This document shows positions 3,715 to 58,094 of a stretch of 64,000 bases of DNA, in pieces. The notes beneath the pieces were generated by a model, which was not told the DNA's origin, made no database searches, and was given only the letters and a program-made list of their open reading frames with translations. The stretch is from contig CASHSZ010000041.1 of the NCBI GenBank assembly GCA_949358305.1, forward strand, positions 1 through 64,000. Direction: 5' to 3'. The position numbers and the translations under genes were made by a program. This stretch comes from Strigamia acuminata (taxonomy: Eukaryota > Arthropoda > Chilopoda > Geophilomorpha > Linotaeniidae). Position 1 is the stretch's first letter. Each line of letters starts with the position of its first letter.

Positions 3715-3855
3715 CGTTGAAAAAGGACAAAAATCGTATTCGATTCGCTTTCGAATCGAATACGAGTTTTGTCCTTTTTCAACGCTTGGGAAAAGGACTC
3801 GAATGCGCCTCCACGTTGCAATGCGCATTTGTGTAAACGATGATGGAATCCCCTG

Positions 3856-3906
3856 CTTAAATACTGGCTATCGCGTCACGTAACAGCAACGTGCCACGTC
3901 ACGTAA
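3856..3906 (-). promoter_or_regulatory. Candidate inward-facing promoter in the right palindrome arm
   Basis: Exact mirror of 671-721: CTTAAATA (TATTTAAG on the minus strand) followed by two CGTCACGTAA motifs. It points left into the hairpin array, convergent with the copy at 671-721. The call rests on motifs only. Confidence 0.35.
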
Positions 3907-14400: not shown

Positions 14401-14899
14401 GCGCGCCATAAGGTTAAAACTCGCGCAATATAGTTTTGTTCAGTGTAATTCTTTGACATTGGGAAAACTTCTTGTTGTTTATCTTTTGGCCCTACAAAGA
14501 TCTTCTGTTGGTCATAGTCGAGCTGGCACCTTGCAGATCTCAAAAAATTATCTCCAAGCAGTAAATGGTTGCCAAATCCGCTGACAATCAGCACTTCAAT
14601 AGTATGTTGTTGTTGTCCAACGTCAATGGTAATCTTGGTTTTTCCTACTGGGGTTATCAATGAACCATCTACAACTCTAAGTCGAACATGTGGACATGGT
14701 TGGTATTTGAGCTGCAGAGTTCTTACCAAATCTTCATTAATGATGTTGCGATAACCTCCGGAATCCAAGACACCAGTGACTTCCAAACCATTCACTACTA
14801 CTGGAATCTGCAAAAGTTCATCTGTGGCGTTCAGCTCAATGATTTCTAATTTTTTCTTTTTGAATTTCTTCTTGTTTTTCCGTCTTTGTGGCCATTCTA
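14361..14899 (-). pseudogene. Retroviral-type aspartic protease frame of a gypsy-like element, truncated
   Basis: This frame lies in -1 register to gag and is open from the gag stop onward. It begins with a basic stretch (about 35 residues, Lys/Arg rich) and then a retropepsin fold: active-site GVLDSGG, with Gly where Ala or Thr is usual, and the later LLLGDNFLR that closes the pepsin-like lobe. By family knowledge it would cleave Gag-Pol during particle maturation. No ATG is needed if it is made by frameshifting (site at 14900-14906). The last 20 or so codons read into CCGCAAAATCCGC-type repeat, and reverse transcriptase, RNase H and integrase are all absent, so the element is cut off at about 14430. 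Retropepsin identity is clear; gypsy assignment comes from protease and gag style. Confidence 0.8.
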
Positions 14900-33447: not shown

Positions 33448-35009
33448 TGTTGCAGGTCAACAAGACAGACAGAAAGGAATGGCGATGCGTATCCAAATTC
33501 AAGACACTTGAGCTCGCCCAAGGTCGTATGGCGTGGTTAGTACGAAAATCGCACTGGAAAGCAATAAATCCGCAACAAATGGCATTGTTGAACCGCTGGA
33601 ACAATGTGGAGAACACCTGCACCAAGTATCCAATAGGTGGCGGAAACATAAGTTGGCCTGAGAATTTTTAAACTACTCACTACACATTGAATGTGTTTGA
33701 AAATAAGCCTAAAACAAGAGCTAATAAAACACAACACATTTATTCAAAGGTTGGTTAATAACTGAAGAAATTACAGCAATTAGATTGGTTCTTAGAGAAC
33801 CGCACATGCGCAGTACCGAATATGGCACGCGCCAGGCCGATAGCGGCGAAATACAGATACACGAAAGATTCCATTACCATGGTAACGGAGGAAACAAGAT
33901 TACGGCAAAGTTGGCATTTGCTTAAAAATGCACTAAAAATACATTGAATTACATTGAAATGACCACAAGAATGCGGTGAACAAAAAAGCTAATCACAACA
34001 ATGTCCAAAAACACGTTAAACAATGAGATATTTGCAATAAACCGATCTCGGAATGAAAGGATTGAAAATAGCCAATCACAGGCTTCGAAAATTACATAAC
34101 GATCACATTTGAATTTCGATCGGTACAAAAGCACAAAATTATCAAAGAATACATACTGAATAATAACGCAATGTAATAGTAAATGCAAATTATGTGATAT
34201 AAAATACATAAACAACGATTACTAAATGTAAACAGTCGCTTGGGACAAACATGGCGACCGGCGAACATAACAAAGGTGTTGGATCAAACATGGCGTCCGG
34301 CGAACATTACAAAAGCTTCAAAACAACACGAAAATGGAATAAAAAGCACTAAATGTAATTATGCAATAAAGAATAGATTAAATAATAAGAATATTTGTTC
34401 ATTCTCTTCACAAAACACCGAGTGATTACACACAAGTTGAATAAATACGAATTTATCGGCCAAATGAACATTCCCGGCTGCGCTTTTATGGCAGACGGAA
34501 ACGAACGTTCAAACCAATCAAACGGAACTTCCAAAGCAGTTTTGATGCATCTAGATAGAAAGAGCATGCTTGAATTAGTCTAAACGAATGCTTAATAAAA
34601 ATCCAAGTGATTTGAAAAGTACTAAACAAAAGGTTAGAAGGCGGAACCGTAACTTTACGGGAAACAGAAAAATGACGTCACTAGCATCGCAATTGTATGC
34701 TAGGTAACGAAATTTGCACCAAAACAGTTCGAAATCAATACAAACTCTCAAAAAACAAGTGAATAAGTCAATAAATGCACGGAATAAGATATTTGAAATC
34801 AATACAAAGCATAAACATTACTGAATATTGAAAAGTATGAATAAAAATCAAGTCAAAACACTTTAATAAGCAATAAAAAAATCTGAAAAGTGAAAAATAC
34901 CAATTAGGCAAAGGAAATTAAAACACTTAAAGATTTTAATCAACTCAAAGTAAATGGTAAAAATATTGACAATAAAATAGCACAACAATTTCTACGCTGT
35001 CTTGCAACA
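33448..35009 (-). mobile_element. Solo BEL/Pao LTR, copy 2 (duplicate of copy 1)
   Basis: It appears identical to 26837-28398, at an offset of exactly 6611 bp, with the same ACTTA flanks (33443-33447 and 35010-35014) and the same preceding satellite variants (AGCCCAAAC at 26397 and 33008). It is therefore a segmental copy, not a second insertion. Confidence 0.92.
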
Positions 35010-38000
35010 ACTTAGCACAAACACCACAAGACCAATGTCTCTGAATGTTTAGAAATAGTGTTTAAACCTTAGTAGAAGGCTTCAATGTAAGTGTTAGCAA
35101 CATCCAAGCAATAATTTGAAAGAATAAACTTTTGATCTCATTTGACATCACAGTTGACTTAGCACAAACACCACAAACCAATGTCTCTGAATGTTCTGAA
35201 ATAGTGTTTAAACCTTAGTAGAAGGCTTCAATGTAAGTTTTAGCAACATCCAAGCAATGATTTGGGAGAATAGACTTTTGATCTCATCACAGTTGACTTA
35301 GCACAAACACCACAAGACCAATGTCTCTGAATGTTTAGAAATAGTGTTTAAACCTTAGTAGAAGGCTTCAATGTAAGTGTTAGCAACATCCAAGCAATAA
35401 TTTGAAAGAATAAACTTTTGATCTCATTTGACATCACAGTTGACTTAGCACAAACACCACAAACCAATGTCTCTGAATGTTCTGAAATAGTGTTTAAACC
35501 TTAGTAGAAGGCTTCAATGTAAGTTTTAGCAACATCCAAGCAATGATTTGGGAGAATAGACTTTTGATCTCATCACAGTTGACTTAGCACAAACATCACA
35601 AGACCAATGTCTCTGAATGTTTTGAAATAGTGTTTAAACCTTAGTAGAAAGCTTTAATGTAAGTTTTAGCAACATCCAAGCAATGATTTGGGAGAATAGA
35701 CTTTTGATCTCATCACAGTTGACTTAGCACAAACATCACAAGACCAATGTCTCTGAATGTTCTGAAATAGTGTTTAAACCTTAGTAGAAAGCTTTAATGT
35801 AAGTTTTAGCAACATCCAAGAAATGATTTGGGAAAATAGACTTTTGATCTCATCACAGTTGACTTAGCACAAACACCACAAGACCAATGTCTCTAAATGT
35901 TCTGAAATAGTGTTTAAACCTTAGTAGACGGCTTCAATGTAAGTTTTAGCAACATCCAAGCAATGATTTGGGAGAATAGACTTTTGATCTCATCACAGTT
36001 GACTTAGCACAAACACCACAAGACCAATGTCTCTGAATGTTTAGAAATAGTGTTTAAACCTTAGTAGAAGGCTTCAATGTAAGTGTTAGCAACATCCAAG
36101 CAATAATTTGAAAGAATAAACTTTTGATCTCATTTGACATCACAGTTGACTTAGCACAAACACCACAAGACCAATGTCTCTGAATGTTCTGAAATAGTGT
36201 TTAAACTTTAGTAGAAAGCTTTAATGTAAGTTTTAGCAACATCCAAGCAATGATTTGAAAGAATAAACTTTTGATCTCATTTGACATCACAGTTGACTTA
36301 GCACAAACATCACAAGACCAATGTCTCTGAATGTTCTGAAATAGTGTTTAAACCTTAGTAGAAGGCTTCAATGTAAGTTTTAGCAACATCCAAGCAATGA
36401 TTTGGAAGAATAAACTTTTGATCCCATTTGACATCACAGTTGACTTAGCACAAACACCACAAACCAATGTCTCTGAATGTTCTGAAATAGTGTTTAAACC
36501 TTAGTAGAAGGCTTCAATGTAAGTTTTAGCAACATCCAAGCAATGATTTGGGAGAATAGACTTTTGATCTCATCACAGTTGACTTAGCACAAACACCACA
36601 AGACCAATGTCTCTGAATGTTTAGAAATAGTGTTTAAACCTTAGTAGAAGGCTTCAATGTAAGTGTTAGCAACATCCAAGCAATAATTTGAAAGAATAAA
36701 CTTTTGATCTCATTTGACATCACAGTTGACTTAGCACAAACATCACAAGACCAATGTCTCTGAATGTTTTGAAATAGTGTTTAAACCTTAGTAAAAAGCT
36801 TTAATGTAAGTTTTAGCAACATCCAAGCAATGATTTGGGAGAATAGACTTTTGATCTCATCACAGTTGACTTAGCACAAACACCACAAGACCAATGTCTC
36901 TAAATGTTCTGAAATAGTGTTTAAACCTTAGTAGACGGCTTCAATGTAAGTTTTAGCAACATCCAAGCAATGATTTGGGAGAATAGACTTTTGATCTCAT
37001 CACAGTTGACTTAGCACAAACACCACAAGACCAATGTCTCTGAATGTTCTGAAATAGTGTTTAAACCTTAGTAGAAGGCTTCAATGTAAGTTTTAGCAAC
37101 ATCCAAGCAATGATTTGGAAGAATAAACTTTTGATCCCATTTGACATCACAGTTGACTTAGCACAAACATCACAAGACCAATGTTTCTGAATGTTCTGAA
37201 ATAGTGTTTAAACCTTAGTAGAAGGCTTCAATGTAAGTTTTAGCAACATCCAAGCAATGATTTGGAAGAATAAACTTTTGATCCCATTTGACATCACAGT
37301 TGACTTAGCACAAACATCACAAGACCAATGTTTCTGAATGTTCTGAAATAGTGTTTAAACCTTAGTAGAAAGCTTCAATGTAAGTTTTAGCAACATCCAA
37401 GCAATAATTTGAAAGAATAAACTTTTGATCTCATTTGACGTCACAGTTGACTTAGCACAAACACCACAAGACCAATGTGTCTGAATGTTCTGAAATAGTG
37501 TTTAAACCTTAGTAGAAGGCTTCAATGTAAGTTTTAGCAACATCCAAGCAATGATTTTGGAGAATAGACTTTTGATCTCATCACAGTTGACTTAGCACAA
37601 ACATCACAAGACCAATGTCTCTGAATGTTCTGAAATAGTGTTTAAACCTTAGTAGAAAGCTTTAATGTAAGTTTTAGCAACATCCAAGCAATGATTTGAA
37701 AGAATAAACTTTTGATCTCATTTGACATCACAGTTGACTTAGCACAAACATCACAAGACCAATGTCTCTGAATGTTCTGAAATAGTGTTTAAACCTTAGT
37801 AGAAGGCTTCAATGTAAGTTTTAGCAACATCCAAGCAATGATTTGGAAGAATAAACTTTTGATCCCATTTGACATCACAGTTGACTTAGCACAAACATCA
37901 CAAGACCAATGTTTCTGAATGTTCTGAAATAGTGTTTAAACCTTAGTAGAAAGCTTCAATGTAAGTTTTAGCAACATCCAAGCAATAATTTGAAAGAATA

Positions 38001-41000
38001 AACTTTTGATCTCATTTGACGTCACAGTTGACTTAGCACAAACACCACAAGACCAATGTCTCTGAATGTTTAGAAATAGTGTTTAAACCTTAGTAGAAGG
38101 CTTCAATGTAAGTGTTAGCAACATCCAAGCAATAATTTGAAATAATAAACTTTTGATCTCATTTGACATCACAGTTGACTTAGCACAAACACCACAAACC
38201 AATGTCTCTGAATGTTCTGAAATAGTGTTTAAACCTTAGTAGAAGGCTTCAATGTAAGTTTTAGCAACATCCAAGCAATGATTTGGGAGAATAGACTTTT
38301 GATCTCATCACAGTTGACTTAGCACAAACATCACAAGACCAATGTCTCTGAATGTTTTGAAATAGTGTTTAAACCTTAGTAGAAAGCTTTAATGTAAGTT
38401 TTAGCAACATCCAAGCAATGATTTGGGAGAATAGACTTTTGATCTCATCACAGTTGACTTAGCACAAACATCACAAGACCAATGTCTCTGAATGTTCTGA
38501 AATAGTGTTTAAACCTTAGTAGAAAGCTTTAATGTAAGTTTTAGCAACATCCAAGAAATGATTTGGGAAAATAGACTTTTGATCTCATCACAGTTGACTT
38601 AGCACAAACACCACAAGACCAATGTCTCTAAATGTTCTGAAATAGTGTTTAAACCTTAGTAGACGGCTTCAATGTAAGTTTTAGCAACATCCAAGCAATG
38701 ATTTGGGAGAATAGACTTTTGATCTCATCACAGTTGACTTAGCACAAACACCACAAGACCAATGTCTCTAAATGTTCTGAAATAGTGTTTAAACCTTAGT
38801 AGAAGGCTTCAATGTAAGTTTTAGCAACATCCAAGCAATGATTTGGAAGAATAAACTTTTGATCCCATTTGACATCACAGTTGACTTAGCACAAACATCA
38901 CAAGACCAATGTTTCTGAATGTTCTGAAATAGTGTTTAAACCTTAGTAGAAGGCTTCAATGTAAGTTTTAGCAACATCCAAGCAATGATTTGGAAGAATA
39001 AACTTTTGATCCCATTTGACATCACAGTTGACTTAGCACAAACATCACAAGACCAATGTTTCTGAATGTTCTGAAATAGTGTTTAAACCTTAGTAGAAAG
39101 CTTCAATGTAAGTTTTAGCAACATCCAAGCAATAATTTGAAAGAATAAACTTTTGATCTCATTTGACGTCACAGTTGACTTAGCACAAACACCACAAGAC
39201 CAATGTGTCTGAATGTTCTGAAATAGTGTTTAAACCTTAGTAGAAGGCTTCAATGTAAGTTTTAGCAACATCCAAGCAATGATTTTGGAGAATAGACTTT
39301 TGATCTCATCACAGTTGACTTAGCACAAACATCACAAGACCAATGTCTCTGAATGTTCTGAAATAGTGTTTAAACCTTAGTAGAAAGCTTTAATGTAAGT
39401 TTTAGCAACATCCAAGCAATGATTTGAAAGAATAAACTTTTGATCTCATTTGACATCACAGTTGACTTAGCACAAACATCACAAGACCAATGTCTCTGAA
39501 TGTTCTGAAATAGTGTTTAAACCTTAGTAGAAGGCTTCAATGTAAGTTTTAGCAACATCCAAGCAATGATTTGGAAGAATAAACTTTTGATCCCATTTGA
39601 CATCACAGTTGACTTAGCACAAACATCACAAGACCAATGTTTCTGAATGTTCTGAAATAGTGTTTAAACCTTAGTAGAAAGCTTCAATGTAAGTTTTAGC
39701 AACATCCAAGCAATAATTTGAAAGAATAAACTTTTGATCTCATTTGACGTCACAGTTGACTTAGCACAAACACCACAAGACCAATGTCTCTGAATGTTTA
39801 GAAATAGTGTTTAAACCTTAGTAGAAGGCTTCAATGTAAGTGTTAGCAACATCCAAGCAATAATTTGAAATAATAAACTTTTGATCTCATTTGACATCAC
39901 AGTTGACTTAGCACAAACACCACAAACCAATGTCTCTGAATGTTCTGAAATAGTGTTTAAACCTTAGTAGAAGGCTTCAATGTAAGTTTTAGCAACATCC
40001 AAGCAATGATTTGGGAGAATAGACTTTTGATCTCATCACAGTTGACTTAGCACAAACATCACAAGACCAATGTCTCTGAATGTTTTGAAATAGTGTTTAA
40101 ACCTTAGTAGAAAGCTTTAATGTAAGTTTTAGCAACATCCAAGCAATGATTTGGGAGAATAGACTTTTGATCTCATCACAGTTGACTTAGCACAAACACC
40201 ACAAGACCAATGTCTCTAAATGTTCTGAAATAGTGTTTAAACCTTAGTAGACGGCTTCAATGTAAGTTTTAGCAACATCCAAGCAATGATTTGGGAGAAT
40301 AGACTTTTGATCTCATCACAGTTGACTTAGCACAAACACCACAAGACCAATGTCTCTAAATGTTCTGAAATAGTGTTTAAACCTTAGTAGACGGCTTCAA
40401 TGTAAGTTTTAGCAACATCCAAGCAATGATTTGGGAGAATAGACTTTTGATCTCATCACAGTTGACTTAGCACAAACACCACAAGACCAATGTCTCTGAA
40501 TGTTCTGAAATAGTGTTTAAACCTTAGTAGAAGGCTTCAATGTAAGTTTTAGCAACATCCAAGCAATGATTTGGAAGAATAAACTTTTGATCCCATTTGA
40601 CATCACAGTTGACTTAGCACAAACATCACAAGACCAATGTTTCTGAATGTTCTGAAATAGTGTTTAAACCTTAGTAGAAGGCTTCAATGTAAGTTTTAGC
40701 AACATCCAAGCAATGATTTGGAAGAATAAACTTTTGATCCCATTTGACATCACAGTTGACTTAGCACAAACATCACAAGACCAATGTTTCTGAATGTTCT
40801 GAAATAGTGTTTAAACCTTAGTAGAAAGCTTCAATGTAAGTTTTAGCAACATCCAAGCAATAATTTGAAAGAATAAACTTTTGATCTCATTTGACGTCAC
40901 AGTTGACTTAGCACAAACACCACAAGACCAATGTGTCTGAATGTTCTGAAATAGTGTTTAAACCTTAGTAGAAGGCTTCAATGTAAGTTTTAGCAACATC

Positions 41001-41830
41001 CAAGCAATGATTTTGGAGAATAGACTTTTGATCTCATCACAGTTGACTTAGCACAAACATCACAAGACCAATGTCTCTGAATGTTCTGAAATAGTGTTTA
41101 AACCTTAGTAGAAAGCTTTAATGTAAGTTTTAGCAACATCCAAGCAATGATTTGAAAGAATAAACTTTTGATCTCATTTGACATCACAGTTGACTTAGCA
41201 CAAACATCACAAGACCAATGTCTCTGAATGTTCTGAAATAGTGTTTAAACCTTAGTAGAAGGCTTCAATGTAAGTTTTAGCAACATCCAAGCAATGATTT
41301 GGAAGAATAAACTTTTGATCCCATTTGACATCACAGTTGACTTAGCACAAACATCACAAGACCAATGTTTCTGAATGTTCTGAAATAGTGTTTAAACCTT
41401 AGTAGAAAGCTTCAATGTAAGTTTTAGCAACATCCAAGCAATAATTTGAAAGAATAAACTTTTGATCTCATTTGACGTCACAGTTGACTTAGCACAAACA
41501 CCACAAGACCAATGTCTCTGAATGTTTAGAAATAGTGTTTAAACCTTAGTAGAAGGCTTCAATGTAAGTGTTAGCAACATCCAAGCAATAATTTGAAATA
41601 ATAAACTTTTGATCTCATTTGACATCACAGTTGACTTAGCACAAACACCACAAACCAATGTCTCTGAATGTTCTGAAATAGTGTTTAAACCTTAGTAGAA
41701 GGCTTCAATGTAAGTTTTAGCAACATCCAAGCAATGATTTGGGAGAATAGACTTTTGATCTCATCACAGTTGACTTAGCACAAACATCACAAGACCAATG
41801 TCTCTGAATGTTTTGAAATAGTGTTTAAAC
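35010..41830 (+). repeat. Satellite array, block 3 (about 47 monomers, 1728-bp higher-order repeat)
   Basis: Same satellite. The variant GTGTCTGAATG occurs at 37477, 39205 and 40933, giving two exact intervals of 1728 bp, a higher-order unit of about 12 monomers. The last 5 bp (TAAAC, 41826-41830) are the left target duplication of the copia element. Confidence 0.95.
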
Positions 41831-42376
41831 TGTTGGCCTATTGGACCGCCAGTTGTGTCGATGTGACATAAAATCACATTCTTATTGTTTAATTATCTAA
41901 TCTCGATGTATTTTCCCATTTTTATCAATATTCGATATTGTTTATTTTTTCCTCGCATTTATATGCATTTGTTACGTTTTTGCATGGGGTACCATGCTAT
42001 TCCTAGTGCTTTTGTTAAGCTTTACGGAATTTCTCAATTCCGTAACGCCAATTCACGACACCAGGTGTCGTTAGTGTTCTTATCACCTTCCAAGATGGCG
42101 GCGACCATCGTTTTGGCTCTCGCCCATCCATTTTCACTCTGTAAACCCTTTAGTTGTAAGTATTTTTGCTTTAGTAAATTCGTTTTATGCTTTTAAGCAT
42201 TCGTACATTGATTTCGCGGCATATAAGCGCGTTTGCGCGGCCGTTCAATTCGTTTTCCGTCGTCGACGTCGCCCACACGTTCGCACGAGTAGTGCGACGC
42301 CTTTGCGACGTTTTTGCCGTGTTTCACTCGACGTTTCGAGTGATTCTTGGTCGTTTTCCTCTGCTACCGACCTACA
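41831..42376 (+). repeat. 5' LTR of the copia element
   Basis: TGTTGG..CTACA, 546 bp. It has a TATA-like ATATAAGC at 42221-42228 and an upstream CAAGATGGCGGC (42091-42102) that resembles a YY1/Pho-type site. A GTAAGT at about 42155 could be a splice donor for the leader. It ends with CCTCTGCTACC-GACCTACA, which is self-complementary to the primer site that follows. Confidence 0.96.
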
Positions 42377-42378
42377 AT

Positions 42379-42390
42379 TGGTAGCAGAGG
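42379..42390 (+). promoter_or_regulatory. Primer-binding site, complementary to initiator Met tRNA 3' end
   Basis: TGGTAGCAGAGG starts two bases after the LTR. The animal initiator tRNA-Met 3' end reads ..CTCTGCTACCA by general knowledge, so the match is 11 to 12 bases. Initiator tRNA is a usual primer in this superfamily. Confidence 0.8.
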
Positions 42391-42414
42391 GTGGTTCTCA
42401 TCCTTTGCACGCTA

Positions 42415-42680
42415 TTTTTCCACTAACCATTGCCGAAAATTCCGCGAATTTCGCGAATTTCGCGGCAATTTTGTATTTTTAGGTTTCCGCGACGATTTTC
42501 GGCATTTTTCGGATGTTTCACGACGTGAGACGACGCCTACATCCTCACAACGCCTTGGCGACGTTGTGCACCAGTTATTTTCATTAATTATCGCCGAAAA
42601 TTCCGCGGGTTTCGCGAATTTTGCGGCGATTTTGTCTTTTGCAGATTCCCGACGTTTCGGCGACGTTCTTCGATTCGACG
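42415..42680 (+). repeat. Duplicated leader segment of the copia element
   Basis: Two imperfect copies, offset by about 161 bp, of a GCCGAAAATTCCGCG..TTTCGCG..GC(A/G)ATTTTGT stretch (42432 and 42593). Each is followed by a splice-acceptor-like end (TTTTTAG at about 42481, TTTTGCAG at about 42643). With the GTAAGT in the LTR this could allow alternative leader splicing; that is inference. Confidence 0.5.
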
Positions 42681-43038
42681 ACGTCGAGCAGACGTCCGCC
42701 ATCGAGAAACGAGATTAATTCTCGCTGTGTCACACCCCGGCGTGTGCACAGTATCGCCGAACTTAAAAAACGACGATTTTCAACGCTTTAAGTGAAGAGC
42801 CTCGATTTAAATCGAGAAGAATTTGGATTTTCGAATCCAAATTGCGTTTTTCTCAGTTCTTCGAGAGAACTGTGCCGTGTTATCTGATTGCACGAGGCTG
42901 TGTGACAATCCACAGCGATTCATCTATTTCTCCTTCATTTCGTGAAACTTTGTTAATTTTAAGTGGGTATTTTGGAGTGGGACACTATTAGTATCGGCAC
43001 TGCCCTACGGACAAGTCTGTCCAAGCGGTGTTTGTATT

Positions 43039-43133
43039 CTAAAGCAAGGCTGAGCCCTGCGCCACCTAGCACTCCCGCAGCCCCAGGTGGCTATAAAGGA
43101 AGCTAGGGGGACACTTGCTTTAGGTTCTCAGCC
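43039..43133 (+). promoter_or_regulatory. Folded RNA element in the copia leader (pseudoknot-like)
   Basis: CTAAAGCAAG (43039-43048) pairs perfectly with CTTGCTTTAG (43114-43123). Inside, GCCACCT (43061-43067) pairs with AGGTGGC (43085-43091). GCTGAG (43049-43054), inside the loop, can pair with CTCAGC (43127-43132), outside it, giving a pseudoknot. It sits about 200 bases before the start codon, so packaging, dimerisation or translation control is possible. Confidence 0.5.
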
Positions 43134-43294
43134 GATTGTAGCATCGGCTCCCCTTCTGGTGATATCCGCTTTGAACCACGTGGGAGGTGATTTAGTGAAT
43201 AGTGCAACGATTTTGTGTGAACAAACATTCGTCCACACCTTCTGTGCCTTAGTGAAGTGCTTCGATCGCCGTTATACCATTCTCCTGAGTCCGT

Positions 43295-46200
43295 GTGCTT
43301 TGTGCGGTGCGCCGAGTCTTCGCAACGATGCAAAAGACAACGGAAACGACGGTCAGCAGAATTCCCATCCTCTCTGTCGGGAATTACGAGCCCTGGCAGA
43401 GGGCGATGCGGATGCTTTTGAAATCCGAGGGCCTTTGGAGGCATGTAACGGAGGAGAAGGAGGCCGATCATCTTTTGACTCTAACGGACAAAGAAAAAGA
43501 ACGTTACATGGTTAAAAAGGACAAAGCTCTCGGGCATATCTACATGTATGTCAGCGAACCGAAACGTTCAGCCCTGGACAATTGTGATACTCCTAAACAG
43601 GCATGGGACGTCCTGGCAAAAGCGTACGCGCCTAGCTCGCGGGCGCGACGAGCAGCATTACGGTCGGAATTCTTGACTTTACATCTCGAAGCCAACGAGG
43701 AAATGCAAGATTTCATCAATCGAGTGGATCATTTTGTCCGTCAATTAGCCGACATCAAAGAGGTTACGACAGATGATCACCATGCATACCAGTACCTCAA
43801 CCGACTACCGCCCGAATACGCTCAAGCAACGTTCGCGATATATCACTGGCCTGATCAGGATTTTACACCGACCAAAGTCGCTGAACAATTGATTTCCGAA
43901 TATCTACGGTTAAAACCGATGGGATTGCACAATGTACACTCATCTTCTGTGCATTCGTCTGTAAAAGGCCAACAATCCCGAAAGAATTCTCGCTCTCGTC
44001 GACCGTTATCGGAAATTAAATGTTTCAACTGTAATGAGATGGGCCACTATGCGAACAAGTGTCCCCATCCACGACGGGAGGATCGCAATCAACCCTCGGC
44101 ATCGGCTTCTTTCCAACGCTCTCGAAGCAAGAGCAAGAAGCGCAACAAAAACGCCGTGCCCAAACCCGACGATACGCGTCCGCGAGGCTGTTCTCGTCCG
44201 ACACGAGAAGGGACATTCTTCGCCAGTGCCCCACAAGCCCCGGCGCGCCCAGTTGCTCATTTCATGCAATCCAACGAATGGATTGTCGACTGTGGCGCGA
44301 CGGACCACGTTTCATATGTTCGAGCTTGGTTTACGGATTTTGTGGACATCGTGCCTTTCGACATCGAGCTCGGACAAGGCAAGTCCAAGGTGACTGGAAA
44401 AGGGAATGTCCGACTGCTCACCAGAATAGATGACTGCAATTGTATTGTGAATTTGACGAATGTACTTTTTGCACCGAATTTCGAGGCCAATTTGATTTCG
44501 GTTTCCAAAATTGACAAAACACGTCATCACATACACTTTTACAACGGTGAAGTCAACATCTATCAATCGGACATTCGGAGCTCTATTCTACGAGCAAAGG
44601 AGAAGGCAGGATTGTATTATGTGGACGGTTTATGTTCGACTCCTTCTGTGTCTGCGGCGATTTCGACCCCAGTGTCGACGATAATTCCGACACCCGTTCA
44701 GCAAACGCCGGCGCTGACTTATGTCACCACAGAAGTGGATTTTGAGAACATTCCGAAACCGAAGAAGGGGAAATTGAGACAAGGAGACATTACGGATTTT
44801 CGCATAGAAATGCCACCAATTCCGAAGCAAATTCCGAATCAAATCGCCAATCCTATCCAGTCTCAAACCGCTCCCAAATCCACCAATGTCCAGCCTGATC
44901 CTCCTACCCAATCCTATTCCAACGTCCTCCAATCCATTCCGACAACACCTTTGCCCAATGCACCTCCTGCCATACCTCCTCCCCCGAGCAATCCTTCTAA
45001 GTCACCAAAGAAGGCAATTGCTAACCCTGCAAACGTAAAGGATGCTACGGGTCTATGGCATAGCAGATTAGGGCATTTGCACACAAATGCAATGCGCCTG
45101 TTGGCGAATAACGACCAAGTTTATGGAATGGAACCGGGAGAAGTAAAACAAGAACTTGCTTGCAACGACTGTCGTCTTGCAAAATCAATTAAAATTTCGC
45201 ACAAACCGGACCTTCACCCGAGTACTACCAAAGCACTCGACCTCCTGCATATGGACGTGTGGGGGCCGGCTCCTGCAACATCTTTCGGTGGAGCTCGTTT
45301 CGTCCTAACGATCATTGATGACGCTACACGATATACTTGGATCACCCCATTGGCGCAGAAGTCCCAAGTCTTCGCATGCTTTAAGGACTTCGCCGCGAGA
45401 GTCGAACGGGTTGCGAATACAACAATCAAAGCCATTCGCACAGACCGTGGCGGGGAATTCATGTCAAATGAATTCGAGCGCTATTTGAAGGACAAAGGGA
45501 TCCAAGGGCAGCGAACGAACCCATCGAGCCCACAGATGAATGGAACGGCCGAACGCATTAACAGAACGATGGCAGACAACATCCGCGCGATTCATGAAGA
45601 AACCAAACTTCCGGCCGGTCTATGGGCAGAGCTTGCTGTAACTTTCGCTTATATCAAGAACAGAAGCCCTCATTCACGCTTGAAAAATCAAGTTCCATAC
45701 ATACTTTGGCGTGAACGGGCATTATCTTTACGACACTTACGAAAGATCGGATCAAAATGTTGGGTCCACTACACAGCGCCAGGCCGTAAAAAGCTTGAGC
45801 CACGCGCATGGGAAGGATACCTCGTTGGGTACGCGGTCGCGACACGTGGCTACAGGATTTGGAATCCCATCGACAATAAAGTCACCGAATCAGCCCACGT
45901 TCGCATAGACGAACATCAATCGTATCGCAAGTTTCTACGAAGCGTACCAAATGGCAACAACGAATCCTTCTATGAACCCAACAATGAACAACAAAGAGTG
46001 TCATTCAACGACACTGTCCAATATGCGGACTGGTCGATCAAGCCAGCATCAGATGATGAGCATTCGATATCCGAAGAAAAATCTGTATCCAAGTCGGCTT
46101 CTAAATCAAAGACGCCACCTATGCAGATCGTTCATATTCCCCCGCCAACTACACCGGAACGACAATTATTGGAACTTTGCGCATCGACATTGCCAACTCC

Positions 46201-48346
46201 AATTCGTCATTCCATATCACATCCGATCACTAACGAAGAAAATGAAGAGGCCGCTGCAGGACCAATTGGGGACGACACCGACGATGACGCTGAGCAGATT
46301 GAAGAATTTGCGGTTCAACCGGACGCGGAAGAATTGCGACCGAATCAGTCTGCACATGCGTCACCGGAAACGTCCAATGCCAGTTCTCCCGGCCTTTCAC
46401 CACCGACTTCCCCAAATCGTTTCATCACGTTACGTAGGAAAGCCGGTCCGAACATTTTACAGCATACAATGCCTATCTTTGATCAGGGGCAAATGTCTCC
46501 ATTGCCTCCTGGCGCAACACATGTTGCAGCTCCTTCTGCCGGCAAGACATCATTCTATTGGCGTTATGTTGGCGGAAACACAGTATTCCGTAAATGGATT
46601 CGCGAAGAACATCTACGCAAAGATCAACAGCCAGGTTCGATAGACATCGATGTCTACTACTTCCCGGAACCCGGCCTCCGACTTCGATCTCGCAGAGACG
46701 TCGAAGAGTTCTGTGTTATGAACAATCTCCCTTACGACCCCGAGTTATTCTTTTTCGGCAATATGGAGCATACACTACCATTGATTCCTCCAGCTCGACA
46801 TGCCGCTCATCTCTGTCGCACCGAACCGTCATCGTATGCGGAAATTCCCAAATTCGACGACGCTCCAAAGTGGCATGAAGCCATCGGTGAAGAGTTAGGA
46901 ACTTTTAAGGAGCGGGAAATTTATGTCGAAGTGCCGAAACCGCCTAACACGACAATCCTGGGTTGTAAATGGATTTTTAAACTCAAATCAGACGCGACCG
47001 GCAAGATTACTCGATATCGTGCTCGACTTGTCGCCCAAGGCTTTCGCCAAACTTTCGGAATCGATTACGACGAGGTCTTCAGCCCAGTAGTGAACTTCGT
47101 CCTCATTCGTCTATTCTTTTGCCTTTTGGTAGTGCTACGAGGATGGAAAGATGCACACCTCGACGTCAAATGTGCATACCTGTACGGGGACCTCGAGCAC
47201 AAGGTCTACATGCGCATCCCGGCAGGTGCCACCTGTAATCACCCCGACAACGTTTGGTTACTCGTGAAATCTCTTTACGGACTCCACCAGTCTGGCCGAC
47301 AGTGGTATTTAAAACTGGACGAAGCACTTCGAGCTCTTGGATTCCGAAAAATGCCTGCTTGCAACTGCGTGTACATCTACGGCAATTGCGCAGTCATGTT
47401 AGTCTACGTCGATGATATTGTACTTTTCTATGCAGCCGACAGTGTCTTGGACCGGATTATTCGACTTATTACTTCGAAATTCGACATAGTCAACCTCGGC
47501 CCAATCACCAAACTGCTAGGAGTCGAGTTTATCCGCGAGATGGGACGCACTTACATCTCCCAACGTGCGTATATCGCGAAACTCATCACGAAGTACGGTA
47601 CATCGACAAATCGACTCGTGAAGGTGCCAGTCACACCCGGAACAACATTAGTTCGAGCATCGACCGAGGACCTGATCGATTTTCCCTACCGCTCGCTTAT
47701 CGGGTCACTGCTTTTTCTGGCATCACGAACACGCCCCGACATCTTATTTTCCGTCATATCGCTTTCGCAATTCAACACTTGCTACGATAACACCCACATC
47801 CGTGCACTCCTTCAAGTTCTCCAGTACGTAGCGAATACTATTGATTATCGTATCGAACTTTCGAATTGTGCGTCAAGCCAATTATGGGCGTATACGGATG
47901 CATCGTGGGCTAGCGATTTGGCGACATCTTTAAGTTTCGGTGGCTACATTACATATATCGGGAATGTGCCAATTGGCTGGTCGTGTCGAAAACAATCGAC
48001 TGTCGCGTGTTCAACTATGGAAGCCGAATTCCTCGCCCTAGTTGAATGCGTGAAGGAAACCTTTTGGCTCGATAACATCTTCACCGAATTCCCGATTTTG
48101 AACCGCCTGTCTCGTCCGATTATTTACTCCGATGCCTTAGCCAGCATACAATTCACATCTAACGACGTGGAAAACTCGAAGACGAAGCATATCCGCGTCA
48201 AGTATCACTGGCTTAGGGAATGGTATACGGCAGGCTGTTTCGATCTCCGCAAAGTGTCCAGCGAGCACAACGTCGCAGACATCTTTACCAAATGGCTCAG
48301 TTCAGAGCGTCTTCAGTCGTTGATCTCTCGTGTGTTCCGACTTTAG
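43295..48346 (+). CDS. gag-pol: Copia Gag-Pol polyprotein with MBD-like domain (1683 codons)
   Basis: The true start is probably the ATG at 43328, in better context than 43295. Residues here count from 43295. Gag (about 12-230) is UBN2/DUF4219-like and is followed by a CX2CX4HX4C knuckle (C243, C246, H251, C256). The protease has WIVDCGATDH (Asp about 332), with Cys in place of the usual Ser or Thr after the catalytic Asp. The integrase has LWHSRLGHLH..CNDCRLAK zinc binding, then D654, D717 and E753, a perfect D,D35E. A Pro/Ser-rich linker leads to an MBD-like domain at about 1089-1155. RT starts near 1191 and has YVDD at 1371-1374. RNase H has D1535, E1576 and D1613 and ends with KHIRVKYHW. 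All catalytic residues are present and no stop or frameshift occurs. It would assemble cytoplasmic particles, reverse transcribe the RNA and integrate the cDNA in the nucleus. Confidence 0.96.
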   Translation: MLCAVRRVFATMQKTTETTVSRIPILSVGNYEPWQRAMRMLLKSEGLWRHVTEEKEADHLLTLTDKEKERYMVKKDKALGHIYMYVSEPKRSALDNCDTPKQAWDVLAKAYAPSSRARRAALRSEFLTLHLEANEEMQDFINRVDHFVRQLADIKEVTTDDHHAYQYLNRLPPEYAQATFAIYHWPDQDFTPTKVAEQLISEYLRLKPMGLHNVHSSSVHSSVKGQQSRKNSRSRRPLSEIKCFNCNEMGHYANKCPHPRREDRNQPSASASFQRSRSKSKKRNKNAVPKPDDTRPRGCSRPTREGTFFASAPQAPARPVAHFMQSNEWIVDCGATDHVSYVRAWFTDFVDIVPFDIELGQGKSKVTGKGNVRLLTRIDDCNCIVNLTNVLFAPNFEANLISVSKIDKTRHHIHFYNGEVNIYQSDIRSSILRAKEKAGLYYVDGLCSTPSVSAAISTPVSTIIPTPVQQTPALTYVTTEVDFENIPKPKKGKLRQGDITDFRIEMPPIPKQIPNQIANPIQSQTAPKSTNVQPDPPTQSYSNVLQSIPTTPLPNAPPAIPPPPSNPSKSPKKAIANPANVKDATGLWHSRLGHLHTNAMRLLANNDQVYGMEPGEVKQELACNDCRLAKSIKISHKPDLHPSTTKALDLLHMDVWGPAPATSFGGARFVLTIIDDATRYTWITPLAQKSQVFACFKDFAARVERVANTTIKAIRTDRGGEFMSNEFERYLKDKGIQGQRTNPSSPQMNGTAERINRTMADNIRAIHEETKLPAGLWAELAVTFAYIKNRSPHSRLKNQVPYILWRERALSLRHLRKIGSKCWVHYTAPGRKKLEPRAWEGYLVGYAVATRGYRIWNPIDNKVTESAHVRIDEHQSYRKFLRSVPNGNNESFYEPNNEQQRVSFNDTVQYADWSIKPASDDEHSISEEKSVSKSASKSKTPPMQIVHIPPPTTPERQLLELCASTLPTPIRHSISHPITNEENEEAAAGPIGDDTDDDAEQIEEFAVQPDAEELRPNQSAHASPETSNASSPGLSPPTSPNRFITLRRKAGPNILQHTMPIFDQGQMSPLPPGATHVAAPSAGKTSFYWRYVGGNTVFRKWIREEHLRKDQQPGSIDIDVYYFPEPGLRLRSRRDVEEFCVMNNLPYDPELFFFGNMEHTLPLIPPARHAAHLCRTEPSSYAEIPKFDDAPKWHEAIGEELGTFKEREIYVEVPKPPNTTILGCKWIFKLKSDATGKITRYRARLVAQGFRQTFGIDYDEVFSPVVNFVLIRLFFCLLVVLRGWKDAHLDVKCAYLYGDLEHKVYMRIPAGATCNHPDNVWLLVKSLYGLHQSGRQWYLKLDEALRALGFRKMPACNCVYIYGNCAVMLVYVDDIVLFYAADSVLDRIIRLITSKFDIVNLGPITKLLGVEFIREMGRTYISQRAYIAKLITKYGTSTNRLVKVPVTPGTTLVRASTEDLIDFPYRSLIGSLLFLASRTRPDILFSVISLSQFNTCYDNTHIRALLQVLQYVANTIDYRIELSNCASSQLWAYTDASWASDLATSLSFGGYITYIGNVPIGWSCRKQSTVACSTMEAEFLALVECVKETFWLDNIFTEFPILNRLSRPIIYSDALASIQFTSNDVENSKTKHIRVKYHWLREWYTAGCFDLRKVSSEHNVADIFTKWLSSERLQSLISRVFRL
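46559..46757 (+). other. MBD-like (methyl-CpG-binding) domain inside copia Pol
   Basis: Residues 1089-1155 of the polyprotein. The core reads DVYYFPEPGLRLRSRRDVEEF (D1119 to F1139) followed by FFFG at 1152-1155, with a W-x-R (1101-1103) and a Gly loop (1114) before it. That order is the MBD signature: W.R, basic loop, DVYY, P.G, RS, E..., then F.F. By family knowledge of MeCP2, an Asp, a Tyr and two Arg contact methyl-CpG; D1119, Y1121 and R1131 line up, and R1108 or K1109 could be the other Arg. It lies just after integrase and directly before RT. Domain identity is by eye, not by profile search. Confidence 0.75.
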
Positions 48347-48544
48347 AATTTATCGTGACATTCTTTTGTTATTTACCCGACTTCGAGGATCACCGAGTTT
48401 CTGTGGGAATTTTCGGGCTTACGTAGCGTTTTCAATGACAGTACCCGGCTCGGCGATTCGACCTTATTGCTTATTTTCGTTTATTACTTATATCTACTGT
48501 AATTCCAGTAACTGTATTTCATTTCCCCTGATTCTATCTCCATC

Positions 48545-48555
48545 GAAAGGGGGAA
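48545..48555 (+). promoter_or_regulatory. Polypurine tract of the copia element
   Basis: GAAAGGGGGAA ends one base before the 3' LTR (48557). It is the expected plus-strand primer for LTR elements. Confidence 0.88.
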
Positions 48556-48556
48556 T

Positions 48557-49102
48557 TGTTGGCCTATTGGACCGCCAGTTGTGTCGATGTGACATAAAAT
48601 CACATTCTTATTGTTTAATTATCTAATCTCGATGTATTTTCCCATTTTTATCAATATTCGATATTGTTTATTTTTTCCTCGCATTTATATGCATTTGTTA
48701 CGTTTTTGCATGGGGTACCATGCTATTCCTAGTGCTTTTGTTAAGCTTTACGGAATTTCTCAATTCCGTAACGCCAATTCACGACACCAGGTGTCGTTAG
48801 TGTTCTTATCACCTTCCAAGATGGCGGCGACCATCGTTTTGGCTCTCGCCCATCCATTTTCACTCTGTAAACCCTTTAGTTGTAAGTATTTTTGCTTTAG
48901 TAAATTCGTTTTATGCTTTTAAGCATTCGTACATTGATTTCGCGGCATATAAGCGCGTTTGCGCGGCCGTTCAATTCGTTTTCCGTCGTCGACGTCGCCC
49001 ACACGTTCGCACGAGTAGTGCGACGCCTTTGCGACGTTTTTGCCGTGTTTCATTCGACGTTTCGAGTGATTCTTGGTCGTTTTCCTCTGCTACCGACCTA
49101 CA
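48557..49102 (+). repeat. 3' LTR of the copia element
   Basis: 546 bp, the same as the 5' LTR apart from T at 49053. It is followed by the right target duplication TAAAC (49103-49107). Confidence 0.97.
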
Positions 49103-50564
49103 TAAACCTTAGTAGAAAGCTTTAATGTAAGTTTTAGCAACATCCAAGCAATGATTTGGGAGAATAGACTTTTGATCTCATCACAGTTGACTTAGCACAA
49201 ACACCACAAGACCAATGTCTCTAAATGTTCTGAAATAGTGTTTAAACCTTAGTAGACGGCTTCAATGTAAGTTTTAGCAACATCCAAGCAATGATTTGGG
49301 AGAATAGACTTTTGATCTCATCACAGTTGACTTAGCACAAACACCACAAGACCAATGTCTCTGAATGTTTAGAAATAGTGTTTAAACCTTAGTAGAAGGC
49401 TTCAATGTAAGTGTTAGCAACATCCAAGCAATAATTTGAAAGAATAAACTTTTGATCTCATTTGACATCACAGTTGACTTAGCACAAACACCACAAGACC
49501 AATGTCTCTGAATGTTCTGAAATAGTGTTTAAACTTTAGTAGAAAGCTTTAATGTAAGTTTTAGCAACATCCAAGCAATGATTTGAAAGAATAAACTTTT
49601 GATCTCATTTGACATCACAGTTGACTTAGCACAAACATCACAAGACCAATGTCTCTGAATGTTCTGAAATAGTGTTTAAACCTTAGTAGAAGGCTTCAAT
49701 GTAAGTTTTAGCAACATCCAAGCAATGATTTAAAAGAAGAAACTTTTGATCCCATTTGACATCACAGTTGACTTAGCACAAACATCACAAGACCAATGTT
49801 TCTGAATGTTCTGAAATAGTGTTTAAACCTTAGTAGAAAGCTTCAATGTAAGTTTTAGCAACATCCAAGCAATAATTTGAAAGAATAAACTTTTGATCTC
49901 ATTTGACGTCACAGTTGACTTAGCACAAACACCACAAGACCAATGTCTCTGAATGTTTAGAAATAGTGTTTAAACCTTAGTAGAAGGCTTCAATGTAAGT
50001 GTTAGCAACATCCAAGCAATAATTTGAAAGAATAAACTTTTGATCTCATTTGACATCACAGTTGACTTAGCACAAACACCACAAACCAATGTCTCTGAAT
50101 GTTCTGAAATAGTGTTTAAACCTTAGTAGAAGGCTTCAATGTAAGTTTTAGCAACATCCAAGCAATGATTTGGGAGAATAGACTTTTGATCTCATCACAG
50201 TTGACTTAGCACAAACACCACAAGACCAATGTCTCTGAATGTTTAGAAATAGTGTTTAAACCTTAGTAGAAGGCTTCAATGTAAGTGTTAGCAACATCCA
50301 AGCAATAATTTGAAAGAATAAACTTTTGATCTCATTTGACATCACAGTTGACTTAGCACAAACACCACAAACCAATGTCTCTGAATGTTCTGAAATAGTG
50401 TTTAAACCTTAGTAGAAGGCTTCAATGTAAGTTTTAGCAACATCCAAGCAATGATTTGGGAGAATAGACTTTTGATTTCATCACAGTTGACTTAGCACAA
50501 ACATCACAAGACCAATGTCTCTGAATGTTTTGAAATAGTGTTTAAACCTTAGTAGAAAGCTTTA
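49103..50564 (+). repeat. Satellite array, block 4 (about 10 monomers)
   Basis: Continuation of block 3 after the copia insertion. The array ends inside a monomer at AGTAGAAAGCTTTAA, where unrelated CCTTTTCGCGGATT sequence starts. Confidence 0.94.
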
Positions 50565-54858: not shown

Positions 54859-57800
54859 TTACGTGACGTGGCACGTTGCTGTTACGTGACGCGATAGCCA
54901 GTATTTAAGCAGGGGATTCCATCATCGTTTACACAAATGCGCATTGCAACGTGGAGGCGCATTCGAGTCCTTTTCCCAAGCGTTGAAAAAGGACAAAACT
55001 CGTATTCGATTCGAAAGCGAATCGAATACGATTTTTGTCCTTTTTCAACGCAAAATTGTATTCGATTCGCTTTCGAATCGAATACGAGTTTTGCCCTTCT
55101 TCAACGCGAAATCGTATTCGACTCGCTTTCGAGTCGAATGCGAATTTTTCCCTTCTTCAACGCGAAATCGTATTCGACTCGTTTTCGAGTCGAGTACGAG
55201 TTTTGCCCTTCTTCAACGCGAAATCGTATTCGACTCGTTTTCGAGTCGAATACGAGTTTTGCCCTTCTTCAACGCGAAATCGTATTCGACTCGTTTTCGA
55301 GTCGAGTACGAGTTTTGCCCTTCTTCAACGCGAAATCGTATTCGACTCGTTTTCGAGTCGAGTACGAGTTTTGCCCTTCTTCAACGCGAAATCGTATTCG
55401 ACTCGTTTTCGAGTCGAATACGAGTTTTGCCCTTCTTCAACGCGAAATCGTATTCGACTCGTTTTCGAGTCGAGTACGAGTTTTGCCCTTCTTCAACGCG
55501 AAATCGTATTCGACTCGTTTTCGAGTCGAATACGAGTTTTGCCCTTCTTCAACGCGAAATCGTATTCGACTCGTTTTCGAGTCGAGTACGAGTTTTGCCC
55601 TTCTTCAACGCGAAATCGTATTCGACTCGTTTTCGAGTCGAATACGAGATAGTCGATGACCCGTTCCCGGACTTTGACTCGTACGACTCGTATTCGAGAT
55701 GTATTCGAGATGTATTCGAGATGTATTCGAATCGTATTCGAGTCGCATTCGAGATGGTCGATGATTTCCACTCGCTCGTATACGCGTTGTATACGAGCTC
55801 GTATTTTGATCGTAATCGTAAACGAATCGTTTACAAGTCGTATACAAGTTGTATACGACGTGTATACACCTCGTATACGAACGAAGTTTGTGAAAACACA
55901 ATTTCCAAATAAGACGTATGTGACTACTATGTGTTTTCATGTCGTAGTAAGTATCCGGTGGATTTTCCAAACTTCGTTCGTATACGAGGTGTATACACGT
56001 CGTATACAACTTGTATACGACTTGTAAACGATTCGTTTACGATTACGATCAAAATACGAGCTCGTATACAACGCGTATACGAGCGAGTGGAAATCATCGA
56101 CCATCTCGAATGCGACTCGAATACGATTCGAATACATCTCGAATACATCTCGAATACGAGTCGTATACGAGATGGTCGATTTTTGTTTCCCGGACTTTGA
56201 TTCGTATTCGAGTTGTTACGAGTTCGTATTTTGATCGTATTCGTATTCGAATCGAATTCGAATCGTATTCGAATCGAATACGAATCGAATTCGAGTCGTA
56301 TTCGAGATGGTCGATGATTTCCACTCGCTCGTATACGCGTTGTATACGAGCTCGTATTTTGATCGTAATCGTAAACGAATCGTTTACAAGTCGTATACAA
56401 GTTGTATACGACGTGTATACACCTCGTATACGAACGAAGTTTGTGAAAACACAATTTCCAAATAAGACGTATGTGACTACTATGTGTTTTCATGTCGTAG
56501 TAAGTATCCGGTGGATTTTCCAAACTTCGTTCGTATACGAGGTGTATACACGTCGTATACAACTTGTATACGACTTGTAAACGATTCGTTTACGATTACG
56601 ATCAAAATACGAGCTCGTATACAACGCGTATACGAGCGAGTGGAAATCATCGACCATCTCGAATGCGACTCGAATACGATTCGAATACATCCCGAATACA
56701 TCTCGAATACGAGTCGTATACGAGATGGTCGATTTTTGTTTCCCGGACTTTGATTCGTATTCGAGTTGTTACGAGTTCGTATTTTGATCGTATTCGTATT
56801 CGAATCGAATTCGAATCGAATACGAATCGAATTCGAGTCGTATTCGAGATGGTCGATGATTTCCACTCGCTCGTATACGCGTTGTATACGAGCTCGTATT
56901 TTGATCGTAATCGTAAACGAATCGTTTACAAGTCGTATACAAGTTGTATACGACGTGTATACACCTCGTATACGAACGAAGTTTGTGAAAACACAATTTC
57001 CAAATAAGACGTATGTGACTACTATGTGTTTTCATGTCGTAGTAAGTATCCGGTGGATTTTCCAAACTTCGTTCGTATACGAGGTGTATACACGTCGTAT
57101 ACAACTTGTATACGACTTGTAAACGATTCGTTTACGATTACGATCAAAATACGAGCTCGTATACAACGCGTATACGAGCGAGTGGAAATCATCGACCATC
57201 TCGAATGCGACTCGAATACGATTCGAATACATCTCGAATACATCTCGAATACATCTCGAATACGAGTCGTACGAGTCAAAGTCCGGGAACGGGTCATCGA
57301 CTATCTCGTATTCGACTCGAAAACGAGTCGAATACGATTTCGCGTTGAAGAAGGGCAAAACTCGTACTCGACTCGAAAACGAGTCGAATACGATTTCGCG
57401 TTGAAGAAGGGCAAAACTCGTATTCGACTCGAAAACGAGTCGAATACGATTTCGCGTTGAAGAAGGGCAAAACTCGTACTCGACTCGAAAACGAGTCGAA
57501 TACGATTTCGCGTTGAAGAAGGGCAAAACTCGTATTCGACTCGAAAACGAGTCGAATACGATTTCGCGTTGAAGAAGGGCAAAACTCGTACTCGACTCGA
57601 AAACGAGTCGAATACGATTTCGCGTTGAAGAAGGGCAAAACTCGTACTCGACTCGAAAACGAGTCGAATACGATTTCGCGTTGAAGAAGGGCAAAACTCG
57701 TATTCGACTCGAAAACGAGTCGAATACGATTTCGCGTTGAAGAAGGGCAAAACTCGTACTCGACTCGAAAACGAGTCGAATACGATTTCGCGTTGAAGAA

Positions 57801-58094
57801 GGGAAAAATTCGCATTCGACTCGAAAGCGAGTCGAATACGATTTCGCGTTGAAGAAGGGCAAAACTCGTATTCGATTCGAAAGCGAATCGAATACAATTT
57901 TGCGTTGAAAAAGGACAAAAATCGTATTCGATTCGCTTTCGAATCGAATACGAGTTTTGTCCTTTTTCAACGCTTGGGAAAAGGACTCGAATGCGCCTCC
58001 ACGTTGCAATGCGCATTTGTGTAAACGATGATGGAATCCCCTGCTTAAATACTGGCTATCGCGTCACGTAACAGCAACGTGCCACGTCACGTAA
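54859..58094. repeat. Core of giant palindrome 2
   Basis: Copy of 671-3906 at an offset of exactly 54188, with the same 56-bp hairpin arrays (55051-55652 and 57301-57902), inward promoter-like ends (54859-54909 and 58044-58094) and three S modules (55751, 56304, 56846) with loops all in one orientation. The sequence appears unchanged between the two copies. Confidence 0.93.

What the first reader, a model, noticed from the sequence alone, without database searches (positions are those of the whole stretch)
46559..46757. Methyl-CpG-binding domain carried by an intact copia retrotransposon
Seen: a W-x-R, Gly loop, DVYY, P-G, RLRSRR, FFFG series in order inside the gag-pol frame, between the D,D35E integrase and the RT. 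Established: MBD domains read methylated CpG through Asp, Tyr and Arg residues in these places, and chromodomains at the integrase C-terminus of Ty3/gypsy chromoviruses steer integration to marked chromatin. Inference: this element uses a captured MBD to steer integration, or to bind or mask methylated DNA. I know of no described copia element with this layout. A non-methyl-binding MBD-like fold is also possible, since the first Arg is displaced.
Basis: partly seen in the sequence, partly recalled or inferred. Interest (0 to 1): 0.9.

Follow-up and report, generated by a model that had tools for sequence, protein, structure and literature searches.

The report
Retrotransposons carrying a methyl-DNA-reading domain
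An insect-like genome holds a large, old family of copia "jumping genes" with a captured methyl-CpG-binding domain next to their integrase, probably a handle on chromatin, which would make them a copia counterpart of the gypsy elements that carry chromodomains.

Summary
The window holds a young copia element (LTRs 41831-42376 and 48557-49102, TSD TAAAC, ORF 43295-48346) with an MBD at 46595-46762, between integrase and RT. Alone it scores 18.7 bits on Pfam MBD (cut-off 21). But in this genome all 150 scored MBD matches exceed the cut-off, 124 of 149 in frames of 1300 aa or more. A profile of 11 copies hits MBD2 in the PDB at 8.5e-15; VIA ranks 1-28 of its AlphaFold model are MBD/TAM domains. 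The four methyl-CpG contact residues are present; RF1 is not displaced. Spider (Araneus) and unnamed metagenome proteins share the fusion. The RT tree fits one capture, later lost or decayed in places. The MBD is under purifying selection. Two MBD lineages share chromosome bins (intact copies 38/72) that other copia (5/94) and BEL (10/122) do not, as expected of an integrase tether. Methyl reading is unproven and partly contradicted: no CpG hypermutation, a nearly CpG-free site for this copy, and Tyr-less lineages that cluster alike. Host DNMT searches did not complete. Six literature searches listed no title or abstract that describes it.

The parts
41826..41830 (.). target-site duplication TAAAC, 5' copy
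41831..42376 (+). 5' LTR, 546 bp, TG...CA, one difference from the 3' LTR
42379..42396 (+). primer binding site, TGGTAGCAGAG...; looks complementary to the 3' end of initiator-Met tRNA (tRNA match recalled, not from a call)
   Evidence: sequence
43295..48346 (+). gag-pol ORF, 1683 aa, start codon as listed mechanically
43406..43912 (+). copia-type gag (PF14223)
   Evidence: E 4e-29
44015..44068 (+). CCHC zinc knuckle
44279..44494 (+). Pol_BBD domain (PF22936)
45014..45187 (+). GAG-pre-integrase domain
45230..45532 (+). integrase core (rve); both matches below Pfam's cut-off, the query having been cut within the domain
45716..45925 (+). integrase C-terminal SH3_retrovirus domain (PF25597)
   Evidence: E 4.3e-24
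46595..46762 (+). methyl-CpG-binding domain; RF1 R1108 at 46616-46618, Asp 1119 at 46649-46651, Tyr 1121 at 46655-46657, RF2 R1131 at 46685-46687, acid D1135 at 46697-46699
46958..47635 (+). reverse transcriptase (RVT_2)
   Evidence: E 4.8e-55
48546..48553 (+). polypurine tract AAAGGGGG
   Evidence: sequence
48557..49102 (+). 3' LTR
49103..49107 (.). target-site duplication TAAAC, 3' copy

Best explanation
This is one young copy of a large clade of Ty1/copia retrotransposons of arthropods (at least) that captured a methyl-CpG-binding domain once, at the C-terminal end of integrase (between its SH3 domain and RT), and has kept it under purifying selection. Shown: the domain, its predicted fold, its recognition residues, its spread and its conservation. 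Inferred: after polyprotein cleavage the MBD stays on integrase and acts as a DNA/chromatin tether that biases insertion to a particular compartment (repeat-rich, perhaps pericentromeric), as chromodomains do in chromoviruses. Whether it senses methylated CpG, or binds DNA or a chromatin protein without regard to methylation, is open; in this host the evidence leans to the second.
For: Domain and fold. Six columns (Trp, Arg, RF1, Asp, RF2, Ser) are invariant in 11 of 11 aligned copies, which are 28-37% identical to the window copy except two of its own lineage at 75%; roles of RF1, RF2, Asp and Tyr from PMC8811898 (passages). 10 of 16 aligned public proteins keep all four contacts. Selection: in 11 of 11 pairs dN in the MBD (0.06-0.35) is below that of the adjoining linker (0.23-0.68); pairs share members, so they are not independent. 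One gain: MBD-bearing and degenerate rows sit in one branch of 25 of 42 rows, support 99/97, with one MBD-less row inside; the nearest outer rows P0076, P0049 and P0121 have none. Other hosts: Pfam MBD in 7 of 120 listed proteins, two of them Araneus ventricosus; order rve-SH3-MBD-RT rescanned in P0081 and P0107. Placement: set B lies in 1-Mb bins rich in set A in 60 of 128 cases, against 13 of 147 other copia and 13 of 145 BEL; frames of 1300 aa or more 38/72, 5/94, 10/122; held-out MBD set C 35/112.
Against: Placement can arise from selection after insertion or from any other difference between the clades, since the MBD copies are one clade. Set C is weaker than B, and its 1647-aa subfamily is near background (4 of 15 in A- or B-rich bins, which are 45 of about 229 bins). 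Only 12 of the 150 copia controls were read for lack of an MBD; the rest are judged by RT group and frame length (none over 1465 aa). The compartment was not identified directly: the satellite search hit mostly C5 at 12.1-13.3 Mb, and gene-density searches did not complete. No cleavage site between integrase and RT was mapped, so attachment of the MBD to integrase is assumed. Some relatives do without it: P0010 lacks it and P0112, P0002, P0006 and P0007 have lost contact residues.
Confidence: 0.6

Rival explanations
1. The MBD reads 5-methylcytosine and steers integration to methylated DNA.
For: All four residues known to contact methyl-CpG are present in the window lineage and in L001/L002, L003/L004, L043 and L006; profile and fold match MBD2, MBD4, MBD1 and MeCP2 best.
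Against: CpG transitions per site equal non-CpG (31 in 110 sites against 69 in 253, 33 partial copies; 12 against 30 without the oldest copy); CpG o/e 0.88-1.51 in 11 element loci, decayed ones included, and 1.78 in the LTR; the window copy lies in DNA with 1 CpG within 500 bp on each side; 20 of 26 set-A copies read have V, I or W for the Tyr yet set A shares compartments with set B. Arthropods mostly methylate gene bodies (recalled).
Confidence: 0.2
2. The MBD does not steer integration. It is a general DNA- or protein-binding aid (for example in the pre-integration complex, or shielding against silencing), and the shared compartments reflect selective retention in gene-poor DNA.
For: One clade only, so placement is confounded with everything else in the clade; clusters such as C6 15.3-16.1 Mb may be nested or duplicated; one MBD subfamily is near background.
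Against: The bias is present in long-frame, recent copies, survives thinning to one hit per 50 kb (B 34/66, other copia 5/87, BEL 10/117), and recent other copia and BEL copies in the same genome do not show it.
Confidence: 0.3
3. The similarity is a chance linker, not a domain.
For: The window copy alone is below the Pfam cut-off, its lone PDB sequence hits are weak (E 0.39-0.9) and its lone-sequence AlphaFold model is poor (pLDDT 45.5).
Confidence: 0.01

Closest known systems
Chromoviruses (Ty3/gypsy elements with a chromodomain at the integrase C-terminus; recalled, topic seen only in the listing)
   Same: Chromatin-reader module at the end of integrase in a long-lived element clade; here too a shared insertion compartment.
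   Different: Copia domain order (integrase before RT), MBD fold instead of chromodomain, ligand unknown.
Ty5 (yeast copia element whose integrase C-terminal targeting domain binds Sir4; recalled)
   Same: Copia element with the targeting part between integrase and RT.
   Different: Ty5 uses a short peptide motif (recalled); here a folded domain.
MBD2, MBD4, MBD1 and MeCP2 methyl-CpG-binding domains
   Same: Fold, RF1, RF2, Asp and Tyr (window lineage), acid after RF2.
   Different: In a retrotransposon polyprotein; one extra loop residue in the window lineage; Tyr lost in several other lineages.
GalEa and other described metazoan copia clades (PMC3587641, passages)
   Same: Animal Ty1/copia elements.
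   Different: No occurrence of words beginning methyl or MBD in that text or in PMC8556966; clade membership of these elements was not tested.

Membership tests
Ty1/copia LTR retrotransposon | LTRs ending TG...CA with short target duplication | tested here: met
   546-bp LTRs, 1 difference, TSD TAAAC
Ty1/copia LTR retrotransposon | copia gag, integrase before an RVT_2 reverse transcriptase | tested here: met
   the rve matches themselves are below Pfam's cut-off, SH3_retrovirus and pre-integrase are above
Ty1/copia LTR retrotransposon | RNase H and aspartic protease | tested here: inconclusive
   no Pfam hit in the five pieces scanned; no DTG or DSG triplet in the ORF
MBD domain | Pfam PF01429 over its cut-off | tested here: inconclusive
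   window copy 18.7 bits against 21; all 150 scored genome matches over the cut-off
MBD domain | MBD fold | tested here: met
MBD domain | RF1, Asp, Tyr and RF2 for methyl-CpG recognition | tested here: met
   window copy; roles from PMC8811898 (passages)
MBD domain | binds methylated CpG | not testable with these tools
   needs a binding assay
Chromovirus | Ty3/gypsy-type polyprotein with integrase after RT | tested here: not met
   integrase domains precede RVT_2
Chromovirus | chromodomain at integrase C-terminus | tested here: not met
   no chromodomain among Pfam families at E up to 1 in 5 pieces
Ty5-like targeted copia | targeting part between integrase and RT that directs insertion | tested here: inconclusive
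   position met; direction only correlated

The most novel reading that the evidence does not exclude
A whole arthropod copia clade uses a captured methyl-CpG-binding domain as an integrase tether to a heterochromatin compartment, and does so largely without DNA methylation, so that the MBD has been re-purposed as a chromatin address reader and has diverged in its methyl-sensing residue between element lineages.
Probability: 0.4. Interest if true: 0.88.

Novelty: new variant of a known kind. Interest (0 to 1): 0.8.

Why it matters
Chromodomain capture made chromoviruses the standard example of an element steering itself by reading chromatin (recalled). This would be a second, independent capture of an epigenetic reader, in another LTR superfamily, kept through a deep radiation and lost or decayed in side branches. 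It offers natural comparisons (Tyr and Tyr-less lineages, degenerate and MBD-less relatives) to ask what MBD domains read in animals whose transposons show no sign of CpG methylation.

Tried and rejected
Rejected: chance linker; displaced first Arg; simple reading of the elements' own methylated DNA. Led nowhere: lone-sequence AlphaFold; a search with MBD plus RT start found no homolog (0 of 117 candidates), while a search with the RT part did; a second MBD-centred search found only itself (1 of 82 candidates); CpG counts in flanks of other copies were mixed and uninformative, and not every LTR end was placed. A first RT tree had rows broken by frame breaks and was replaced by a cleaned one, in which 5 of 20 MBD rows (L001, L066, L003, L007, L060) were dropped for early stops. 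Host DNA methyltransferase (PF00145), COX1 (PF00115) and kinase (PF00069) searches did not complete, so host methylation machinery, host name and gene density are untested. From one hit (C3:20309085, probable host MBD exon, L052) and the window itself were left out of the position sets; the query locus was left out. Position counts use large contigs only; hits on small contigs are given apart. One search stopped midway by a script error and was rerun.

Full report
What is there. The window contig lies in a 237.5-Mb genome of 157 contigs. At 41831-49102 a copia element sits in a 140/147-bp satellite array. Its LTRs are 546 bp with one difference, and the target duplication is TAAAC on both sides, so the insertion is recent. 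The ORF 43295-48346 is 1683 aa. Pfam on five pieces gives gag, CCHC, Pol_BBD, pre-integrase, rve (below cut-off), SH3_retrovirus, MBD (below cut-off) and RVT_2 in that order.

Is it an MBD. For this copy alone Pfam is just below its cut-off (18.7 of 21 bits) and the PDB search is weak (E 0.39 to 0.9, all four hits MBD4 or MBD2). The family settles it. In the own genome PF01429 has 150 scored matches of 1092 candidates, all over the cut-off; of 149 (one probable host exon set aside) 124 lie in frames of 1300 aa or more and 119 in 1500 or more. The window's MBD has 150 scored matches, itself included, of 1242 candidates at 71-100% identity. Eleven copies from eight sequence groups were aligned (window, L057 and L061 are one group, L003 and L004 another). 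Six columns are invariant: Trp, Arg, RF1 Arg, Asp, RF2 Arg and Ser. PMC8811898 (passages) gives R111 (RF1), R133 (RF2), D121 and Y123 as the methyl-CpG contacts in MeCP2, with E137 holding RF2; the matching position is acidic in 11 of 11 copies, and the Tyr is kept in 8 of 11. The profile finds 31 PDB sequences, all MBD-type or BAZ2 domains, best MBD2 at 8.5e-15. AlphaFold on a window piece with 16 public relatives gives block means of 85-96 over residues 31-80 (overall 73.2). VIA-align ranks 1-28 of 50 shown are MBD or TAM domains; rank 29 and the rows from 36 on are unrelated folds, with six more MBD/TAM rows at ranks 30-35. Without an alignment the model was poor (45.5).

How widespread. 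Nine further copies, picked from RT relatives for different frame lengths (about five sequence groups), all carry the domain (9 of 9). Twelve other copia copies of the same genome, read from integrase to RT, do not: the only one listed by my MBD profile has domain E 2.0. Seven of those twelve have basic GRP motifs, by eye like AT-hooks, in the same linker (AT-hook motif recalled). In public proteins, 7 of the 120 listed RT relatives (5050 passed the threshold, the rest not shown) carry a precomputed Pfam MBD. Two are annotated as Araneus ventricosus; one of those stands for 217 sequences. Of 32 listed proteins with 100 aa or more before RT, 15 have the domain by a profile I built and 17 do not; 11 of the 17 are the plant Tanacetum. 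Six of the 15 were in the profile's own training set. The 15 include two truncated or broken ones (P0013, P0021). Among 16 aligned public proteins 10 keep all four contacts; P0112 has lost RF1, Asp and RF2; P0002, P0006 and P0007 have lost Asp and Tyr, and P0002 and P0006 RF2 as well. P0006 was counted as none because the profile missed it.

One capture. In an RT tree of 27 rows the 15 MBD rows are one side of a branch (100/100). In a tree of 42 rows with public proteins, 21 MBD rows (P0112 and the partial P0013 and P0021 among them) and 3 degenerate rows lie in one branch of 25 (99/97) with a single MBD-less row (P0010, next to the broken P0021, hence a likely loss); the nearest outer rows have no MBD. 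The three degenerate rows form one clade (100/99). So the rows chosen need one gain and one loss, two changes in all. Only listed proteins and the copies fetched were in the tree.

Kept by selection. Between diverged copies the MBD changes slowly in amino acids: dN 0.06-0.35 in 11 pairs, lower than the linker just before it in every pair (0.23-0.68), against 0.009-0.28 in RT. Synonymous sites are at dS about 1 or saturated, except RT of one pair (0.47). The pairs share members, so they are not independent.

Where the copies lie. Set A (149 hits) and set B (149 hits, window lineage) share no locus within 2 kb. B falls in A-rich 1-Mb bins (30 bins of about 229) in 60 of 128 cases on large contigs; other copia in 13 of 147; BEL/Pao in 13 of 145. 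Of the 150 other-copia hits 12 were read and lack the MBD; none of the 150 has a frame over 1465 aa and none lies within 2.5 kb of an MBD hit. For open frames of 1300 aa or more the figures are 38 of 72, 5 of 94 and 10 of 122 (Fisher p 2e-12 and 9e-12). Thinned to one per 50 kb: 34 of 66, 5 of 87, 10 of 117. Circularly shifting one set gives a mean overlap of 24.7 against 60 observed, not reached in 20,000 draws over 228 distinct shifts; the overlap of A with other copia is below its shifted mean (30 against 38.9), and BEL with either MBD set is near its mean. A held-out MBD set C gives 35 of 112 in A-rich bins for long frames, weaker but above both controls (p 2e-6 and 1e-5); one subfamily (1647 aa, 4 of 15 in A- or B-rich bins) is near background. 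Unplaced small contigs hold 16, 21 and 22 of 149 in A, B and C, against 3 and 5 of 150 for the controls. Telomere repeats TTAGG stand at three of 20 contig ends read (C1 start, C8 end, C11 start); this repeat is typical of insects and other arthropods (recalled). On C1 and C8 the MBD-rich end is the other, non-telomeric one, which would fit pericentromeric sequence; C11 is not informative. All counts use only the 150 best-scoring hits of each search.

Does it read methylation. Against: CpG C-to-T changes per site are 0.28 (31 in 110 sites), non-CpG 0.27 (69 in 253), in 33 partial copies; 0.11 and 0.12 without the oldest. Eleven element loci keep CpG o/e of 0.88-1.51, decayed ones too. The window copy has 1 CpG within 500 bp on each side of its site, though most other copies looked at lie in CpG-bearing DNA. 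The Tyr is V, I or W in 20 of the 26 set-A copies read, yet A shares B's compartments. For: the window lineage and several others keep every contact residue. Host DNMT genes could not be searched.

Reading. Most likely the MBD is a tether at the end of integrase that biases insertion, in the place where Ty5 has its targeting part and chromoviruses their chromodomain (both recalled). Steps shown: domain, position, conservation, shared placement. Steps inferred: that it stays on integrase, that it causes the placement, what it binds.

Literature. Six answered searches of the held library listed no paper whose title or abstract describes an MBD in a copia element (listings only). PMC3587641 and PMC8556966 were searched for words beginning methyl and MBD and have none. 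Subscription papers and preprints are not held, so this does not prove that none exists.

Noticed in passing
29906-41825 and 49108-50560: Satellite array of 140/147-bp units with copies repeating every 1728 bp, almost without CpG next to the element (o/e 0.07 at 38-41.8 kb, 0.05 at 49.1-50.6 kb); the same satellite is on C5 at 12.1-12.4 and 13.27 Mb, C8 11.67 Mb and C65.
   Followed up: partly
17903-21304: Long BEL/Pao retrotransposon frame, + strand (Peptidase_A17, DUF5641, Integrase_H2C2).
   Followed up: partly
14364-16402: Ty3/gypsy-like frames on the - strand: aspartyl protease over the Pfam cut-off, capsid/gag matches below it.
   Followed up: no
702-3875 and 54890-58063: Block with open frames on both strands present twice, 54188 bp apart, CpG o/e 2.4 in 1-4 kb and 1.7-2.2 in 52-60 kb; 56-bp repeats at 54.9-55.7 kb; frames spaced 1676 bp after each block suggest tandem units.
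   Followed up: no
L079, L080, L081, L082, L084, L088, L089: Seven of 12 MBD-less copia copies read have basic GRP (AT-hook-like, by eye) motifs where the others carry the MBD: perhaps different DNA tethers at one site.
   Followed up: no
L052: Probable host MBD exon with an RGTVTYFSPCGKKF series, perhaps BAZ2-like (resemblance recalled); 110-aa open frame.
   Followed up: no
P0002, P0006, P0007, P0112: Public copia proteins whose MBD-like region has lost contact residues: Asp and Tyr in the first three (one clade), RF1, Asp and RF2 in P0112.
   Followed up: partly
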